Shown one piece after another: positions 9,480 to 21,213 of a DNA stretch of 22,218 nucleotides (the first letter of the stretch is position 1; each line of letters starts with the position of its first letter). The translations under genes were made by a program, and so were the position numbers. The stretch spans positions 1 through 22,218 of the IMG/VR virus record IMGVR_UViG_3300023215_000567. One strand, given 5' to 3'. Source of the DNA: a virus. The notes under the pieces are model-generated. The model was not told where the DNA came from. It saw only the letters and a program-made list of their open reading frames with translations, and did not search any database.

Positions 9480-9779
9480 CTATTTTCCCATCGAATCCAT
9501 ACATACAGAAAATACCATGCGCTTAACGTTTGCCACATCGCCGTGCAAATCGCTAGTCATTGGTACGGCATAAGCAAGATTAATCAGCGCTTCATTTTCA
9601 ACCGTCAAAACACCGGCTTTTTTAATTGCTTTAAGTATTTCTTCTTTCTTGTGACCTTCTGAGCGCATAACCAAAGTATCGCCACCAAGGTCACTGTACT
9701 TTTTGCAGTATTCGTAAGTGTCCGCATAAGCAGACGTTGAACCGATTGTTAAGATTGTAGATAGTAGTAATTTTTTCAT
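9480..9779 (-). CDS. Exported small protein with signal peptide (99 aa)
   Basis: The N-terminus MKKLLLSTILTIGSTSAYAD is a textbook Sec signal peptide with likely cleavage after AYA (residue 19). The mature part is about 80 residues, begins DTYEYCKKYSDLGG and has a second Cys near the end (FSVCMDSMGK), so one disulphide in the periplasm is possible. AGAGAG with a 5-base spacing decides this start over the ATG at 9806. It is the first gene of the leftward transcript from the strong promoter at 9820-9848, so it is probably expressed early. Family not recognised. Confidence 0.75.
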   Translation of the reverse strand: MKKLLLSTILTIGSTSAYADTYEYCKKYSDLGGDTLVMRSEGHKKEEILKAIKKAGVLTVENEALINLAYAVPMTSDLHGDVANVKRMVFSVCMDSMGK

Positions 9780-9819
9780 TTTGACTCTCTTTGCTGTTAA
9801 CTTCATTTAAGTTGCGTTA

Positions 9820-9848
9820 AATATAATGCAGTTTTATTTTGTTGTAAA
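9820..9848 (-). promoter_or_regulatory. Strong leftward promoter from the control region
   Basis: On the minus strand TTTACA (9843-9848), exactly 17 bases, TATATT (9820-9825): both boxes match consensus at five of six positions. It lies about 40 bases before the exported-protein gene and about 50 bases from the edge of the left repeat array. Confidence 0.65.
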
Positions 9849-9897
9849 GGGTTAAATGCGATATTTTCGTTTTATTTTAAATTTATCGGTATTTGTG

Positions 9898-9955
9898 GGT
9901 ATGTTTTTACCCGTTCTGGTATGTTTTGGTATGAAATTGGTATGTTTTTGGTATG
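9898..9955 (+). repeat. Left array: five GGTATG repeats at helical spacing
   Basis: GGTATG starts at 9898, 9918, 9928, 9939 and 9950, with steps of 20, 10, 11 and 11 bases, mostly followed by TTTT. The sites therefore fall on one face of the helix, with one position skipped. A weaker GGTAT lies at 9888. The array mirrors the one at 10195-10253. Confidence 0.8.
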
Positions 9956-10194
9956 TATAAGTATATATATATATAGTATAAGTGTATGTATTTATTATTA
10001 TTATTATTATTATTATCTATCTGTGGGTATATTTTCCCATGTATTTACCATTTTTAATATTTCACATACCAATATCTGTTTTTATACCTGGCAGGTTTAT
10101 TTTTTATTTACCTATGTGCGTACGGGGCGAAAACGGCGTTTTTATACCCATTTTCATAAATAACCATATAAAACATACTGTTGCGAGCTTTTTA

Positions 10195-10253
10195 CATACC
10201 CATTTGCATACCACGGGCATACCAGCACATACCCATTGACGGCCAAATATACC
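10195..10253 (-). repeat. Right array: five CATACC/TATACC repeats, mirror of the left array
   Basis: CATACC starts at 10195, 10207, 10218 and 10228, and TATACC at 10248: steps of 12, 11, 10 and 20, the reverse of the left array. Pairing outermost with outermost and so on gives midpoints of 10075 to 10075.5 for all five pairs. The orientation is inverted relative to the left array. Confidence 0.8.
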
Positions 10254-10377
10254 CAAAACACCCTTCTTTAATCTGTTTTACCTATCAAGTATCGCTTATT
10301 AATCGGTATATTCAATTGTTATTATTAATTAATATGTGTCACCATGTACCACACAATAAATAAATAAGGTTAAACTT

Positions 10378-10602
10378 ATGGAAATCACAACAACCAGACT
10401 ATCTAACGCAAAAGTTAAGTTTAGCGACACTATGCACGCTAATGTTGACTTAGCATCTAGCAAATCGAACATGGACAAAAGCAAGGTTATACGCTCAGCT
10501 ATGCTGCTTGGCCTTGAAGAGCTTTATAGAATAAGTGATGAAAAAGGCAATTCAGAGTTAACAGCAGTTATTGCAAAGCTTGATAAATTAGCAAGGGGTT
10601 AA
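10378..10602 (+). CDS. Ribbon-helix-helix DNA-binding protein (74 aa)
   Basis: The sequence AKVKFSDTM forms the likely DNA-contacting strand, followed by helix A (HANVDLASSKSN) and helix B (KSKVIRSAMLLGLEELYRI), the pattern of CopG/Arc-type repressors. A short C-terminal helix follows. Such proteins bind as dimers, often cooperatively on repeats spaced about one helical turn, which is what lies 125-480 bases upstream; autoregulation or a role in replication or partition is a good inference. AAGG is eight bases before the ATG. It is the first gene of the rightward replication block. Confidence 0.7.
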   Translation: MEITTTRLSNAKVKFSDTMHANVDLASSKSNMDKSKVIRSAMLLGLEELYRISDEKGNSELTAVIAKLDKLARG

Positions 10603-10606
10603 GCGA

Positions 10607-12133
10607 ATGGCTCAAGATATAAATATGGAAAACATAGCTAACTTTGAGCATTTTAAAAATGGTCCTGAATCTGGCGCAATGACCCACAAGGAATACTGGC
10701 CAGAGCCTATACTTTCAGAAGATGACCGCCTCTACTCTACTATGCACTTAATTGATCACAGTAGAAACGATGCGCTAACAAGATTATCTGTAGAAGTGGC
10801 TGGCCAGGTTCAATTTCCAGAGTCTAGCGTTTTCTTGCATGGCCTTGGTTGTGTTGCTGCTGCAATGTGCAAAAGCTTTTACGTTGACTACTTTGGTGAG
10901 CTATCAACAAACTTATACATTGCCACAGCTCAACCGCCTTCAACCGGTAAAACAGGTGTGAGTAATTATTTTACATCGCCAATGCTTGCAGCTACAGAGG
11001 AATTAAACGCTGGCAATATGAAGCGCAGACGCGATATTTTACAAGATATTGAGGATGCAGAGAAAGAGCTTAAAAACAGCAATGGCCGCGAGGAAAAAAT
11101 GGATTTACGCGACACACTGGCAGAGCTTGAAGAAAAACTTTCAAAGTACCCGGTGTACCAGATGTATTTTACCGATGCTACGCCAGAGGCAATTTGTAAT
11201 GAGGCATCAAAGCAAGCTGGTATGTTTAATATTATCTCAGATGAAGCACAATCAATATTAACCAGTATCGGCCTTGCTTATGGCGACGGTAAAAAAGCAC
11301 CAAATAACGAGCCAATTCTGAAAGGCTGGGATAATGGTTATGTAAGTATGGTTCGTATCACTCGCTCTATGCCATCAATACACATTAGAGGCGGTATTGC
11401 AGTGCTAGCACAGTACGAAACAGTAAAGGCAATACTATCTATGTCTGACAGAGAAAACGGCCTTACAGAGCGTTTTTTGTTTGGTTATGAATCTCACATG
11501 CTTGGTTCACGTGACCATACAAACTTTAAACCAGTTAGCGGTGAGGCAAAGACTAATTTTTCTGAGGTTATGCGCAATATAGTGTTATCAGAAAAGACGG
11601 TTTTAAATATTACCGATGATTCAAAGAAGTTTATCTTGCAAAAGAAAAACGAGTTTGAACCTTTAATGGCTGACGGTGGCAAATACTCAAGCAATTTAAT
11701 GCGCGGCTTTTTAGGTAAGATGGATAAGCAAGTATTAAAAATTGCTGCTAGCTTACACGCCATTGATAACTTTCAAGAGTCTGTTAATAATCTAACAATT
11801 AACTATGATTGTGTATTGCGAGCATATAGCATCTATTGCGAGTTATTAAAGACATTCACAAGAACTGCTGATAGTGAAGGTTTTGGCGGTGATGAGTCTC
11901 AAATAAAGCATGTTGCTAAAACACTTTCAGGATATGTTAGCAAAGGGCGTATCGAGGTTAAATCAAGAACGCTTATAGACTCCATTAAAAAGGGCAAGGC
12001 GTTTAAGAGTCAAACCAAGGTTACTGCTCACTTTAACGACAAACTGATGCCCGAACTACAAAAAAGAAATATTTGCTGGTTTAGTGATAATAATGACGGA
12101 TTTATCAGAATAAACCCTAAAATGGCTGAGTAA
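10607..12133 (+). CDS. DUF3987 P-loop protein, probable phage replicative helicase-like ATPase
   Basis: 508 residues, typical for DUF3987. A Walker A loop lies in AQPPSTGKTGVS (108-119), a charged coiled coil covers about 125-175, and MFNIISDEAQSIL (about 206-218) is the Walker B-like strand. MSDRENGLTERFLFGYE in the middle and a C-terminal winged-helix-like segment ending FIRINPKMAE complete it. DUF3987 proteins occur in phage and plasmid replication modules and are thought to act as helicases or primase partners. AGGGG is eight bases before the ATG. The primase gene follows after two bases, supporting a joint role in fork initiation. Confidence 0.8.
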   Translation: MAQDINMENIANFEHFKNGPESGAMTHKEYWPEPILSEDDRLYSTMHLIDHSRNDALTRLSVEVAGQVQFPESSVFLHGLGCVAAAMCKSFYVDYFGELSTNLYIATAQPPSTGKTGVSNYFTSPMLAATEELNAGNMKRRRDILQDIEDAEKELKNSNGREEKMDLRDTLAELEEKLSKYPVYQMYFTDATPEAICNEASKQAGMFNIISDEAQSILTSIGLAYGDGKKAPNNEPILKGWDNGYVSMVRITRSMPSIHIRGGIAVLAQYETVKAILSMSDRENGLTERFLFGYESHMLGSRDHTNFKPVSGEAKTNFSEVMRNIVLSEKTVLNITDDSKKFILQKKNEFEPLMADGGKYSSNLMRGFLGKMDKQVLKIAASLHAIDNFQESVNNLTINYDCVLRAYSIYCELLKTFTRTADSEGFGGDESQIKHVAKTLSGYVSKGRIEVKSRTLIDSIKKGKAFKSQTKVTAHFNDKLMPELQKRNICWFSDNNDGFIRINPKMAE

Positions 12134-12135
12134 TT

Positions 12136-12963
12136 ATGATTAACATTGATGAATTAAAAGCAAGGGTAAATATTGTCGATATCATCGAGAATTTTGTACC
12201 ACTAAGAAATGCTGGCAAGGATTACCAAGCTTGCTGCCCTTTTCACAATGAAAGAACGCCTAGCTTTACCGTTATCGAAAATGATCAGTATTATCACTGC
12301 TTTGGTTGTGGCGCTAACGGTGACGTTATCGACTTCCTAAAAGATATAAACGGATGGGATTTTAAACAGGCTGCAAAGTATTTAGGCGCTGATATAAAAG
12401 ATACTGAAATGGTAACTGGTCAGCCCGTTAAAGCTAGGCCAGCAAGGGCTAGACTTGGATTTGATTGTACGCCATTTGATGCGAGTGAGATAACAGCATT
12501 TTTAAAAACGTGCGAATGCAAAACACACCAGGGTGAACAAATATTCTTTAAAGGATCAAGCCAGATAGCTATTGTTACTGACATAAACGCAAACCCGGTA
12601 AGCTTGATGCAGATTATCGGCCAAGGATTTAAACCTAAGCCATACAAGAAGTCTTTTTTATACGGTAGCTGTGCAATATTTGGCGAGTTAAATGGCGATG
12701 TTTATTTGTGCGAAAACTGGTATGAAGCAAACAAACTTAACCGGGTAGAAGGAAAAAACACAGTTTGTTATTTTGATCCGCATAACCTTTATTTCATGCA
12801 AGACGAATTAAAGCGAAAACAGGGTGTAAAAATAATTGTAGTAGCTGAAACAGAAGAAAGTCTATACCAAGCAGATAAGTTTAATTTACTTGATTGCTAT
12901 ATGGGCGGAATAAAAGTTGATTTAGATTTAATTTACGAGGGTAAAGAATTATGTACGAATTAA
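12136..12963 (+). CDS. CHC2 zinc-finger DNA primase, with an atypical TOPRIM-like region
   Basis: 275 residues. The N-terminus is a clear CHC2 primase zinc finger: Cys34-x2-His37 (ACCPFH) and Cys55-x2-Cys58 (HCFGCG), with GDVIDFLKDINGWDF after it. A following region has VYLCENWYEANKL (189-201) and KIIVVAETEES (232-242) where TOPRIM folds place the catalytic Glu and the Asp-x-Asp pair; here the pair reads Glu-Thr-Glu, so the catalytic core is atypical or degenerate. It would make RNA primers, perhaps with the DUF3987 partner. It starts two bases after that gene and overlaps the helicase by 13 bases. Confidence 0.85.
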   Translation: MINIDELKARVNIVDIIENFVPLRNAGKDYQACCPFHNERTPSFTVIENDQYYHCFGCGANGDVIDFLKDINGWDFKQAAKYLGADIKDTEMVTGQPVKARPARARLGFDCTPFDASEITAFLKTCECKTHQGEQIFFKGSSQIAIVTDINANPVSLMQIIGQGFKPKPYKKSFLYGSCAIFGELNGDVYLCENWYEANKLNRVEGKNTVCYFDPHNLYFMQDELKRKQGVKIIVVAETEESLYQADKFNLLDCYMGGIKVDLDLIYEGKELCTN

Positions 12964-14756
12964 GAGATTACCAACAGAAAGTACATGACAGTACATTGCA
13001 GCATATGCGCGATACTTACAAAACTGGGAATTTTGACCCAGCTTACGCAAGCGTCACAGTTGGCGGTGGTAAAACGGTATTAATAGCTTTTCTTGTTCAG
13101 CAGATAATTAGCAGGCCGGGTAATAGTGTTTTGGTATTGGCAAGGCAAGGCGAATTGGTGGATCAAAACGCTTTAGATGCAAGGGCTATAGGTATTAAGC
13201 TTTCAATATTTAGCGCTAGTTTAAATCAAAAATCGACATACTACCCGGTAATATTTGGAACAGAGGGTACAGTTGGTAGAGCTTTAGATAAGGAGTTTAA
13301 AGACAGGGCTTTTACAGCAATATTAATTGATGAGTGTCATCATGTTAACTGGCAATCTTGTATATCTGACTCTGAGGAGGATAAATCTCAATACGGCAAT
13401 ATAATTAAGCACTTTCAATCTAATGCCGAGCGCTTAGGTGACAAGCCACCGTTAATAATTGGTTACACTGGCTCACCTTATCGTGGTAGCGAGTCTATAT
13501 ACGGCAAGTTTTGGCGAAAGCAGCTATCTGACGTTTCAACCTACGAGTTAATTAATAAAGGGTTTTTAGTCCCGCCTGTATTTGGTTTTGGTGATGATGA
13601 TCATCATTATGAGGCGCTTGATAAGTACCAAATAAAGGGTGGTGAAGGCGCCCAGGATTTTACTGCTAAAGAGCTGGCTGCAATGGGGCGTGATATTTGT
13701 AAAGAGCAGACAAAAACCCAAAAAATAATACAAGAGGTAATGGCCAGAACTGAAAACCGTGATGGTGGCGTTATGATTACATGCGCTAGCAAAAAGCATT
13801 GCGAACAAGTTGCGGAGTGCTTGCCGGAAGGTAGCTGGGGGATAATAACAGACTCGACCAGCACCAAAAAGAGAATGGAAATACTTAATGATATTAAATC
13901 AAACAACATCAAATACATAATACAAATAGGCTGTTTGTCGACAGGTTTTAACGCACCTACACTTTCAACCAGTGTAATATTGCGAAAAATTGGTAGTTTA
14001 ACGCTATTAATACAATTGATTGGCCGAGTGCTTAGAATATTAAAGCCAGAGCATGAAGAAATGGGTATAGTTAAAAAAGATGCGTTGGTGCTTGATTATA
14101 GCGACTCAATTGAAGCTATAGGTAACTTATATGACGACCCAATAGTTCAGCAAGCAATGGAGCAAAAAGGCACTAAGGGAGAAGGTACACCGCAAGAATG
14201 CCCGTTATGCTCAACAATGAATAGTGAGTTTGCAGTGCGCTGTATTGGCCAAGCACAAACTAGCGATGACGGACGTTGCGAGCATTACTTTATGTTTAAC
14301 GAGTGCGGCAATTGTGGCGCACATAACGCACCAAGCGCTAAAACGTGTCGCACTTGCGATGCTGTGATGATTGACCCTAACGCAAACTTAAAAAATAAAG
14401 CGTACACCGATGCGGACTATAAAAAAGTGCTTAGCATGTCATTAACGCAAACTCAAAAAGAAGGTATATGGGTGTGTTATGAATTAGATTCCACTTACAT
14501 GCAAAACGGTATTGAATTTCCTGAGATAGCAAAAGAATACTTTAACCCGTTTTCAACTAAACAGTGGGAGCGTGCAACCTGGCGTAAATTTGTTATTGAG
14601 CATGTAGAGTCAGAAACGTGGCAGCGCGGAATAATGGCAGCTAAAAACTTTGCCCAGTTAAAACAGAATGAAATGGTATTAAAGGCCCCGACATTCATAA
14701 CGCACAGAAAGAACGACAAAGGCTTTAGCATAATAAACCGCAAAAAGTTTGATTAA
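12951..14756 (+). CDS. Superfamily 2 DEAD/H-type DNA helicase with C-terminal zinc ribbons
   Basis: 601 residues. Motif Q-like LRDYQQKVHDS at the start, Walker A VGGGKTVLIAF (37-47), DECH box in LIDECHHVNW (125-134), TGSPYRGS (motif III), CLSTGFNAPTLS and QLIGRVLRILKP (motifs V and VI). This is the RecG/UvrB/Ssl2-like type of phage helicase. After it come two zinc ribbons, CPLC...C about 415-430 and CGNC...CRTC about 450-467, then a roughly 110-residue domain rich in Trp and Lys. It probably unwinds or remodels forks and recombination intermediates. GAGGG nine bases before the ATG lies inside the primase gene. Confidence 0.9.
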   Translation: MYELRDYQQKVHDSTLQHMRDTYKTGNFDPAYASVTVGGGKTVLIAFLVQQIISRPGNSVLVLARQGELVDQNALDARAIGIKLSIFSASLNQKSTYYPVIFGTEGTVGRALDKEFKDRAFTAILIDECHHVNWQSCISDSEEDKSQYGNIIKHFQSNAERLGDKPPLIIGYTGSPYRGSESIYGKFWRKQLSDVSTYELINKGFLVPPVFGFGDDDHHYEALDKYQIKGGEGAQDFTAKELAAMGRDICKEQTKTQKIIQEVMARTENRDGGVMITCASKKHCEQVAECLPEGSWGIITDSTSTKKRMEILNDIKSNNIKYIIQIGCLSTGFNAPTLSTSVILRKIGSLTLLIQLIGRVLRILKPEHEEMGIVKKDALVLDYSDSIEAIGNLYDDPIVQQAMEQKGTKGEGTPQECPLCSTMNSEFAVRCIGQAQTSDDGRCEHYFMFNECGNCGAHNAPSAKTCRTCDAVMIDPNANLKNKAYTDADYKKVLSMSLTQTQKEGIWVCYELDSTYMQNGIEFPEIAKEYFNPFSTKQWERATWRKFVIEHVESETWQRGIMAAKNFAQLKQNEMVLKAPTFITHRKNDKGFSIINRKKFD

Positions 14757-19414: not shown

Positions 19415-19602
19415 GCATAAATCAAGATTTAATAAATAAATGCCAGTCTGATTTAGATGATCTTGGTAGCCTAATGAAATGCCAAGCTACAGAGTTATTA
19501 AGCAACTACAAATCACTAATAGAGCAAAATGCAGAGTTACACAAAGAGCTTGCAAAGTTAAAAGGTGATCGGGTATTTGTTGTTAATGGAGGTGAAGAAT
19601 GA
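19411..19602 (+). CDS. Small coiled-coil protein (63 aa)
   Basis: It starts MSINQDLINKCQSDLDDLGS. Residues about 25-50 form an amphipathic coiled coil (LSNYKSLIEQNAELHKELAK). The ATG overlaps the previous stop and the TGA overlaps the methyltransferase ATG. Its last codons contain the GGAGG used by the methyltransferase. Function unknown. Confidence 0.65.
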   Translation: MSINQDLINKCQSDLDDLGSLMKCQATELLSNYKSLIEQNAELHKELAKLKGDRVFVVNGGEE

Positions 19603-20330
19603 TTAATTTAATGCAAGGCGACTGTTTAGAGCGAATGAAAGAAATACCCGATGATTCGGTAGATGCAATCATCTGCGACCCGCCTTACCAGACAACTGCG
19701 TGTAAGTGGGATTCTATTATCCCATTAGAGCCAATGTGGGAACAGTTGAAGCGTATTATTAAACCCAATGGTGCAATAGTGATGACAGCTAGCCAGCCTT
19801 TTACCACAACGCTTATTGCAAGTAATATGAAGATGTTTCGGTATAATCTAGTGTGGGAAAAGAGCCGTTCAAGCTCACCGATGTTAGCTAAAAAACAGCC
19901 TATGAGATTTCACGAGGATATTTGTGTTTTTTATAATAAGCAACCAACTTACAATCCTATTATGACGCAAGGAGAAAAGAATCACGGCACGAAAGCTGGA
20001 AGAGCTATTATTAATATTCACGGAGGGAAGGAGAGTATTTTTAAAGCTAACACGAGCAACATGAAATACCCTAGAAGCGTCATCAAGATTAAATCAACAG
20101 ATAGCACAAGAAACTTACACCCGACACAAAAACCAGTAGCACTAATGGAATACCTAATCAAGACATACACTAACGAAAATGAAACGGTGCTCGACTTTGC
20201 TTGCGGGTCAGGCAGTACGGCTATTGCGTGTATTAACACCAACCGCAAGGGGATAATGATTGAAAAGGATGAAGGCTATTTCAATATAGCTAAAGAGAGA
20301 ATTAATAACACAAACGACTTGGCGATGTGA
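19599..20330 (+). CDS. DNA adenine/cytosine-N4 methyltransferase (beta class)
   Basis: 243 residues. The catalytic motif IICDPPYQ (DPPY at 27-30) lies before the AdoMet-binding FACGSGST (200-207), the beta-class order; RNLHPTQKP (171-179) is the usual conserved motif between them. It transfers methyl groups to adenine N6 or cytosine N4; the target is not deducible. No restriction enzyme gene is adjacent, so it is likely an orphan that shields phage DNA. GGAGG with a 6-base spacing precedes the ATG; the stop overlaps the next ATG. Confidence 0.9.
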   Translation: MINLMQGDCLERMKEIPDDSVDAIICDPPYQTTACKWDSIIPLEPMWEQLKRIIKPNGAIVMTASQPFTTTLIASNMKMFRYNLVWEKSRSSSPMLAKKQPMRFHEDICVFYNKQPTYNPIMTQGEKNHGTKAGRAIINIHGGKESIFKANTSNMKYPRSVIKIKSTDSTRNLHPTQKPVALMEYLIKTYTNENETVLDFACGSGSTAIACINTNRKGIMIEKDEGYFNIAKERINNTNDLAM

Positions 20331-20455
20331 TGCGTAAGGTCATGTACCTGTGTTTTCGGTGTGGTGGTCACTACCATGCCGAAAGCTTTACCAATCACAA
20401 AGCAGGATTAACTAATTGGTGCAATAAGTGTAAGAAAAAAGGAGGGTGGCAGTAA
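20330..20455 (+). CDS. Small zinc-binding protein (41 aa)
   Basis: It reads MRKVMYLCFRCGGHYHAESF, then NWCNKCKKKGGWQ. Cys8-x2-Cys11 and Cys31-x2-Cys34 form a zinc ribbon. The ATG overlaps the methyltransferase stop (TGATG), and the stop overlaps the next gene's ATG (TAATG). Third tiny zinc protein in this window. Function unknown. Confidence 0.6.
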   Translation: MRKVMYLCFRCGGHYHAESFTNHKAGLTNWCNKCKKKGGWQ

Positions 20456-21213
20456 TGGCATTTAGAAAAGATTTAATGATACCTAAGACGGTTGAAGAAT
20501 TAATAAAAGACCGTGATGAGATTATTCTAACATTGACACACATGGATAAACTCAAACAGCAAGCCGAGGAGCAATGTAAAAGCGTTGGCACTTACATATT
20601 CCCTGTACATCAATTTAGGGGTTATTACGGCATAGAGGTGCTAAAAAAAGACGTTGACAGACGTATGTGGCGACAAACCATAGAGCTAACTGGATTTAAT
20701 AAGTACATGGACAAGATAGCGCGTGATGAGTTTTCCAATTCATTAGAAAAAGATCCACCAGCGTTCACTATAGACAACGTTAGAAGCACACTAATAAGCA
20801 GCTATAACCAAGCCGAGGAATTTATGAATCGTGGTGTTGTAGAATTATTTAGGCGGCTTGGCGCGCAATATAAAACCAATGATGCGTTCAAGATTGGCAA
20901 GAAAATAATATTACGCAACTGGTTTACAGTGTTTTGCGGTGACCTGTCAGTTAACTACAACCAAGAACCAGAAATGAATGACCTTGATCGTGTTGTTCGC
21001 ACGCTTGACGGTGTGGAATTTAAAGAGCATTTATTCAGTCAGTCAATGCGCAAGATGATTAAGTGCAAAGAATGCGAGGACGAGTATTTTAAAATAAAGG
21101 CATTTAAAAATGGCAACGCTCATCTATGGCTAAAGCGTGATGATATAACCGACAAAATAAACGATATAATTGCGGCTTGGTATGGTGATGGCAAGATAGC
21201 GTCAACCAAATAG
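20455..21213 (+). CDS. DUF4942 family protein (252 aa)
   Basis: The ATG at 20455 is chosen because GGAGGG lies eight bases before it; a GTG nine bases upstream would sit on that site. Family features: an N-terminal helical region ELIKDRDEIILTLTHMDKLK, MWRQTIELTGFNKYMDKIAR, FMNRGVVELFRRLGAQYKTN and FKIGKKIILRNWF in the middle. DUF4942 proteins occur in phages and mobile elements, sometimes fused to or next to methyltransferases as here; their role is not known. The C-terminus has a Lys/Cys segment MIKCKECEDEYFKIKAFKNG. Last gene before the late cassette. Confidence 0.8.
   Translation: MAFRKDLMIPKTVEELIKDRDEIILTLTHMDKLKQQAEEQCKSVGTYIFPVHQFRGYYGIEVLKKDVDRRMWRQTIELTGFNKYMDKIARDEFSNSLEKDPPAFTIDNVRSTLISSYNQAEEFMNRGVVELFRRLGAQYKTNDAFKIGKKIILRNWFTVFCGDLSVNYNQEPEMNDLDRVVRTLDGVEFKEHLFSQSMRKMIKCKECEDEYFKIKAFKNGNAHLWLKRDDITDKINDIIAAWYGDGKIASTK

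What the first reader, a model, noticed from the sequence alone, without database searches (positions are those of the whole stretch)
9888..10253. Mirror-image arrays of five helically phased GGTATG repeats around an AT-rich core
Left array GGTATG at 9898, 9918, 9928, 9939, 9950; right array CATACC/TATACC at 10195, 10207, 10218, 10228, 10248. The step series (20, 10, 11, 11 against 12, 11, 10, 20) are mirror images, and all five pairs share a midpoint at 10075 to 10075.5. A roughly 240-base, AT-rich core with AT and TTA runs lies between. The next gene encodes a ribbon-helix-helix protein, a family that binds such phased sites. Two sets of five 11-base iterons also recall the plasmid R1 parC centromere, though there the sets are not inverted and no ParM-like ATPase is seen here. 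An origin, a partition site and a divergent operator are all possible. The spacing and symmetry are seen directly; function is inferred.
Basis: partly seen in the sequence, partly recalled or inferred. Interest (0 to 1): 0.8.

Follow-up and report, generated by a model that had tools for sequence, protein, structure and literature searches.

The report
Mirror-image phage replication origin (predicted)
Two mirror-image sets of short repeats facing each other across the most easily melted stretch of a marine phage genome are very probably where the phage starts copying its DNA, and the same layout with other repeat sequences recurs beside the same helicase gene in many related phages whose origin had never been found.

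Summary
The GGTATG/CATACC units lie exactly where stated, with mirrored steps and a common midpoint at 10075-10075.5. The signal exceeds all 60 shuffles and all 115 control segments.

Relatives decide the reading. Three phages with 85-87% identical helicases keep the arrays. More distant phages with the same helicase family (DUF3987, phrog_2373) keep the layout (outer array, about 55-66 bp, inner sites, weak core, mirrored) but use other iteron sequences. The region holds the weakest 100-bp duplex in 12 of 12 loci tested. Phage H40/1 shares the window's left arm up to 9849, has a different replication gene, and lacks the arrays. The arrays therefore travel with the replication module.

I read it as a two-sided iteron origin (about 0.78), at which two hexamers of the neighbouring helicase (predicted MCM-like fold) load in opposite directions. 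The 74-residue protein is ribbon-helix-helix-like but unconfirmed, and may not be the iteron reader: elsewhere the same iteron accompanies small genes of different folds. Nothing was tested at the bench. Papers on related T1-like phages report no known origin.

The parts
9774..9849 (-). Promoter region of the leftward operon, conserved in phage H40/1 without the arrays; homology to H40/1 ends at 9849, about 40 bp before the first iteron
   Evidence: 96% identity over 77 bp to H40/1; TTTACA-17-TATATT on the minus strand, 10 of 12 matches, though promoter-like sites in the region are no more frequent than in shuffles
9888..9955 (+). Left outer iteron array: GGTAT at 9888, 9898, 9918, 9928, 9939, 9950; the skipped position holds an inverted half-site (GGGTATGTTTTTACCC, 9897-9912)
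   Evidence: conserved in L002, L003, L008
9962..10061 (.). Least stable 100 bp of the window (candidate unwinding element), with an AT run (9962-9974) and a TTA tract (about 9992-10016)
   Evidence: nearest-neighbour profile, z 4.8, first in the window
10025..10031 (+). Inner left iteron GGGTATA
   Evidence: inner left site also in L002, L003, L008, 66 bp inside the outer array (76 bp here)
10065..10088 (-). Two further iterons in the core, CATACC (10065) and TATACC (10083), not aligned with copies in the three relatives
10143..10149 (-). Inner right iteron TATACCC, 52 bp inside the right array
   Evidence: conserved in L002, L003, L008
10195..10253 (-). Right outer iteron array: CATACC at 10195, 10207, 10218, 10228 and TATACC at 10248
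   Evidence: conserved in L002, L003 and, with degenerate units, L008
10333..10354 (+). Conserved block TATGTGTCACCATGTACCACAC between the right array and the small gene; candidate promoter or operator of the replication operon
   Evidence: alignment of four relatives; function inferred
10378..10602 (+). 74-residue ribbon-helix-helix-like protein (possible adaptor or autoregulator)
   Evidence: residue pattern; N-terminal SNAKVKF invariant among four homologues that are 37-42% identical to it overall; family and fold searches inconclusive
10607..12133 (+). DUF3987 / phrog_2373 helicase, predicted MCM-like AAA+ with C-terminal winged helix
   Evidence: PF13148 E 1.9e-39; phrog_2373 E 1.3e-123; AlphaFold2 pLDDT 86.4; Foldseek and VIA-align top rows all MCM, best Z 17.7
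12136..12963 (+). DnaG-type primase with CHC2 zinc finger
   Evidence: PF01807 E 4.9e-34
12951..14756 (+). Second helicase (superfamily 2, ResIII/Helicase_C)
   Evidence: phrog_16

Best explanation
It is the replication origin of this phage: two oppositely oriented arrays of 6-bp iterons with helical spacing, plus inner sites, flanking an AT-rich unwinding element directly upstream of the replication operon (small DNA-binding gene, MCM-like helicase, primase, second helicase). Proposed mechanism: an initiator binds each array on one face of the helix as a polar complex; the two complexes face each other, melt the core and place two helicase hexamers in opposite orientation, so replication starts in both directions. 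The layout, its conservation, the weak core and the linkage to the replication module are shown here. Origin function, melting, double loading and which protein reads the iterons are inferred.
For: Arrays and midpoint confirmed and above shuffles and in-genome controls. Conserved in three relatives with 85-87% identical helicase. The same layout with other iterons upstream of the same helicase family in many phages: for example L057 steps 18,11,55,8 | 8,55,11,9,9 and L020 11,9,11,56,8 | 8,56,10,10,10; mirror matching beats translation in 12 of 23 loci, ties in 11 and is never worse. The blind score tops every control segment in 14 of 28 loci. The region holds the weakest 100-bp duplex in 12 of 12 loci. 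Phage H40/1 keeps the left arm and leftward promoter, has a primase/polymerase instead of this module, and has no GGTATG arrays. Cumulative GC skew has its minimum at the array in the window and in two complete relatives, though confounded with gene orientation. Precedent: E. coli PICI origins always have two iteron sets flanking an AT-rich region, and one such rep-ori region supported plasmid maintenance (PMC6092414); SaPI Rep helicases read iterons with a C-terminal domain and appear to bind as two hexamers (PMC7581432).
Against: No replication, binding or melting data. In half of the 28 loci the blind array score is not the best in the locus, and no arrays were evident in several T1-like relatives (L042, L044, L052). 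GC skew is uninformative apart from coding direction. The inner-site spacing in the window (76 and 52 bp) is not itself symmetric. Iteron sequence does not clearly track either the small protein or any helicase segment.
Confidence: 0.78

Rival explanations
1. Divergent operator: the ribbon-helix-helix-like protein is a repressor that binds both arrays and controls the leftward and rightward operons, possibly by looping.
For: The region lies between divergent genes; small phage DNA-binding genes are often autoregulators; the equivalent gene is often Cro/YdaS-like (PF15943).
Against: The leftward promoter region is 96% conserved in H40/1 without the arrays. The right array ends about 120 bp before the small gene, and another conserved block (10333-10354) sits where a promoter or operator would be expected. 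The layout and weakest-duplex core persist when the small gene is replaced by an unrelated fold.
Confidence: 0.13
2. The region is an origin and the small ribbon-helix-helix-like protein is the iteron-binding initiator that loads the helicase (the first reader's binder, inside the origin reading; included in the 0.78 of the main explanation).
For: The segment that would be the DNA-contacting strand (SNAKVKF) is invariant in the four proteins sharing the GGTAT iteron although they are only 37-42% identical to the window's overall; XCL1123 has a different strand (LLNVKV) and a different iteron, GGGCA.
Against: Decoupling elsewhere: GTGGGG iterons are shared by phages with an AP2-like or an unrelated small protein and near-identical helicases. 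GTAAG iterons occur with an unclassified fold, YdaS-type HTH and Arc-like RHH genes. The conserved strand could instead read the block at 10333-10354.
Confidence: 0.3
3. Centromere-like partition site (R1 parC type).
For: Two sets of five helically phased repeats and a neighbouring RHH-like gene.
Against: Inverted rather than direct sets; the next genes encode helicase and primase; no ParM or ParA annotated in two complete relatives.
Confidence: 0.03
4. Packaging or recombination site (pac or recombination enhancer).
For: The leftward operon carries the terminase genes.
Against: The large terminase lies 3.7 kb and the candidate small terminase 2.6 kb away; H40/1 with homologous terminases (81-92% DNA identity) lacks the arrays.
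Confidence: 0.03

Closest known systems
PICI / SaPI replication origins (Rep helicase + ori)
   Same: [quoted passage not shown] C-terminal DNA-binding domain on the helicase (PMC6092414, PMC7581432)
   Different: Here the array is upstream of a small DNA-binding gene and a DUF3987 helicase of a lytic-type phage; the MCM-like fold and fixed mirrored spacing with inner sites were not described in the passages I read
Phage SPP1 oriL/oriR with gp38, gp39, gp40
   Same: Phage origin of iterons plus AT-rich unwinding element with its own initiator genes (PMC6316719)
   Different: SPP1 uses direct repeats, a separate helicase loader and a DnaB-family helicase; here the sets are inverted and the helicase is not DnaB-like in predicted fold
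Lambda ori (O iterons)
   Same: Iterons beside an AT-rich region, host polymerase
   Different: Lambda iterons lie inside a replication gene as one set of four; here intergenic and two-sided
MCM double-hexamer origins of eukaryotes and archaea (from general knowledge)
   Same: Inverted initiator sites around an unwinding region and MCM-fold helicases facing each other
   Different: No ORC/Cdc6 here; resemblance of helicase by predicted fold only
Plasmid R1 parC/ParR (from general knowledge)
   Same: Two groups of five repeats of about 11 bp and an RHH-type partner
   Different: Direct not inverted, needs ParM, partition not replication

Membership tests
[quoted passage not shown]
Two-sided iteron origin (PICI/SaPI type) | Lies beside an initiator-helicase gene | tested here: met
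   DUF3987 helicase 10607-12133; in SaPIs the ori is downstream of rep, here it is upstream
Two-sided iteron origin (PICI/SaPI type) | Helicase C-terminal domain binds the iterons | not testable with these tools
   Secondary structure of residues 429-503 of the model is consistent with a winged helix; covariation scan inconclusive
Two-sided iteron origin (PICI/SaPI type) | Drives autonomous replication | not testable with these tools
   no bench data
Ribbon-helix-helix protein (74 aa product) | Match to an RHH profile or solved RHH fold | tested here: inconclusive
   No Pfam, PHROG or NCBIfam family; model with helices 17-30 and 34-44 after an extended segment; only weak fold rows, among them single-chain Arc at Z 2.1
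MCM-like AAA+ helicase (DUF3987 product) | MCM fold of the ATPase domain | tested here: met
   Top 50 VIA-align rows are all MCM or MCM-containing complexes, Z 15.6-17.7 over residues 51-420; Foldseek best E 4.2e-5; predicted structure only
MCM-like AAA+ helicase (DUF3987 product) | Sequence match to solved MCMs | tested here: not met
   Profile search of PDB sequences found no MCM chain at E up to 1, so the relation is at fold level only
Plasmid R1-type parC centromere | Repeat sets in direct orientation | tested here: not met
Plasmid R1-type parC centromere | Partner ATPase (ParM or ParA) | tested here: inconclusive
   None annotated in complete TW1 and XCL1123; the window record is a fragment
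Lambda-type ori | Iterons inside the initiator gene | tested here: not met
   Array 9888-10253 lies between genes

The most novel reading that the evidence does not exclude
A large, unrecognised class of phage origins in which an MCM-fold helicase is loaded as two opposed hexamers by mirror-image iteron arrays with fixed spacing (outer array, about 55-66 bp, inner pair 8 bp apart, core), while the iteron sequence and the neighbouring small DNA-binding protein (RHH, YdaS-type HTH, AP2, unknown fold) are swapped independently.
Probability: 0.35. Interest if true: 0.8.

Novelty: new variant of a known kind. Interest (0 to 1): 0.62.

Why it matters
Papers on related T1-like phages state that no origin, iterons or origin-binding protein could be found (TLS, PMC11447400; SU57, PMC7718038; AAS23, PMC8004638). 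A conserved architecture that can be recognised by its symmetry rather than its sequence gives candidate origins for many phages at once, including E. coli laboratory phages Bas78 and Bas79, and makes initiation in this group directly testable. If the MCM-like helicase is loaded as two opposed hexamers, it would be a compact phage counterpart of double-hexamer loading.

Tried and rejected
Search for further relatives of the small protein found only the same three phages; close helicase relatives are limited to those three in IMG/VR, and one scan of bacterial genomes found none. GC skew: the minimum sits at the array in three genomes, but third-position skew is weak and mixed and genes diverge there, so it was set aside. 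Consensus promoter scan: no more sites than in shuffles, no terminator. Fold search with the single-chain small-protein model: nothing significant, as may be expected for an obligate dimer. PDB profile hits of the small protein to Rop are chance-level per domain. Covariation of helicase segments with iteron type: best nominal p 0.004 among more than 100 windows tested, not significant; the winged-helix region reached 0.026. A first mirror detector with exact 6-mers was too sensitive to AT-rich words and was replaced. The SaPIbov1 origin paper is not held. The Vi II-E1 record marks its small gene as a pseudogene, but L025, which has the same record length as Vi II-E1 (45,051 bp), has an intact 90-residue frame, so I did not use that as evidence.

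Full report
The window is a 22,218-bp IMG/VR phage record, classed linear and so possibly a fragment. Left of the finding lie minus-strand packaging genes and small genes; right of it lies a plus-strand replication operon: a 74-residue protein, a DUF3987/phrog_2373 helicase, a CHC2 primase, a superfamily 2 helicase, a RecE-type exonuclease and SSB.

Observation. Against dinucleotide shuffles and 115 other segments of the same window, the inverted arrays are unique. Additions: a unit at 9888, an inverted half-site in the skipped position (9897-9912), inner copies at 10026 and 10143, and two core copies at 10065 and 10083. The least stable 100 bp of the window is 9962-10061.

Close relatives. 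Three IMG/VR phages encode helicases 85-87% identical to this one. All have the GGTAT or GGGTAT arrays in the same place. L002 and L003 repeat the step series; L008 has lost the left 20-bp step. The distance between arrays varies between about 221 and 249 bp, so the arms are conserved as units rather than at a fixed distance.

Distant relatives. Over a thousand phage records have a helicase of this family. Reading the region upstream in 79 fetched loci and several named phages shows the same layout with other iterons: TGTAAG (TW1, L010, L015, L023), AGTAA (L020), GTAAG (L057, L078, L072), GGGTAA (L011), AAAAGG (L029, L031, L077), TAGGAAA (L030), TTAGGG (L032), CGGTAA (L050), GGGC (XCL1123) and GTGGGG (E. 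coli and Salmonella phages). A recurring plan is an outer array with 10-11 bp steps, often one step of about 20 at the outer end, then 55-66 bp, then an inner pair 8 bp apart, then the core, then the mirror image. L057 and L020 show it almost perfectly. A blind score places the region first in 14 of 28 loci; in the rest the iterons are visible by eye or by motif but do not beat all controls. The motifs were chosen by hand, so that table is descriptive. The weakest-duplex test was not fitted to the arrays and put the region first in 12 of 12 loci.

Natural experiment. Pseudoalteromonas phage H40/1 shares the left arm of the window (large terminase 81%, candidate small terminase 92% DNA identity), including 96% identity over window 9774-9849, the leftward promoter region. 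There the homology stops, about 40 bp before the first iteron. H40/1 has a primase/polymerase in place of this operon and no GGTAT or ATACC arrays. So the arrays belong to the replication module, not to the leftward genes.

The proteins. The helicase model (pLDDT 86.4) resembles MCM ATPases: all 50 listed VIA-align rows are MCM or MCM-containing complexes (Z 15.6-17.7), Foldseek best E 4.2e-5. There is no sequence match to solved MCMs. The predicted order of elements in residues 429-503 is that of a winged helix; this part was not searched by itself. DUF3987 was earlier predicted to be a helicase of the AAA+ superfamily (PMC5862659). The small protein fits a ribbon-helix-helix pattern but no library confirms it. 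In other phages its place is taken by YdaS/Cro-type HTH (PF15943), AP2-like (PF00847), Arc-like or unclassified small proteins.

Which protein reads the iterons. If the small protein read them, iteron and small-protein fold should change together. They do not: E. coli-type phages with near-identical helicases and cores keep GTGGGG iterons whether the small gene is AP2-like (L021, L025) or the unclassified fold (L022, L024); GTAAG iterons occur with at least three folds. This favours a constant component, most simply the helicase, as in SaPI Rep and Cch2 (PMC7581432). But in the window's own group the putative DNA-contacting strand of the small protein is invariant while the rest diverges, so it remains a candidate. 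A covariation scan was inconclusive.

Mechanism proposed. Initiator bound along one helix face on each arm; arms polar and facing; melting of 9962-10143; one helicase hexamer from each side; primase and host polymerase follow. The anatomy and its conservation are shown; binding, melting, loading and bidirectionality are inferred.

Known systems. Closest is the PICI/SaPI origin: in E. [quoted passage not shown] SPP1 has direct repeats plus an unwinding element and a DnaB-type helicase (PMC6316719). For related T1-like phages, the TLS authors found no such repeats, the SU57 authors found no oriC-like origin, and the AAS23 authors suggested a yet-unrecognised helicase loader or origin-binding protein. 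The Vi II-E1 record annotates its two repeats without a function. I found no paper that describes this layout, within an open-access library only.

Verdict: a real, conserved, two-sided iteron origin is the best reading (0.78): a new variant of a known kind, of good interest because it makes initiation in a common phage group testable.

Noticed in passing
window 10333-10354: A block (TATGTGTCACCATGTACCACAC) is conserved in all four relatives between the right array and the small gene; it may be the operon's promoter or the small protein's own operator.
   Followed up: partly
L021:2640-3110 and L024:2690-3145: Closely related phages have exchanged the small gene upstream of the helicase (AP2-like for an unclassified fold) while the core and iteron type stayed the same.
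   Followed up: yes
L091 (Pseudoalteromonas phage vB_PspS-H40/1) 4050-5030: A natural replacement of the whole replication module by a primase/polymerase gene beside a conserved left arm; its own intergenic region also has a TTA tract and GGTAAA-like repeats that may be its origin.
   Followed up: partly
L092 (Salmonella phage Vi II-E1) 2597-2621 and 2828-2852: The depositors annotated two copies of a repeat, GTGGGGCAACCAACCTGCCCCACGA, at the two arms of the homologous region without assigning a function.
   Followed up: no
window 9962-10016 and the cores of L004, L005, L010, L011, L020, L031: The cores carry short tandem tracts with a different unit in each phage (TTA, GTAA, ACA, AATGT, AGTATT, CTAT), which might serve unwinding.
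   Followed up: no
L004:5337-5400, L010:2803-2850, L015:2770-2805, L030:2930-2965: A short inverted repeat CCCTT...AAGGG recurs just inside the left arm in several phages.
   Followed up: no
window 19599-20330 and 20446-21213: A DNA methyltransferase-like gene followed by a DUF4942 gene on the plus strand; only the DUF4942 match was checked.
   Followed up: no
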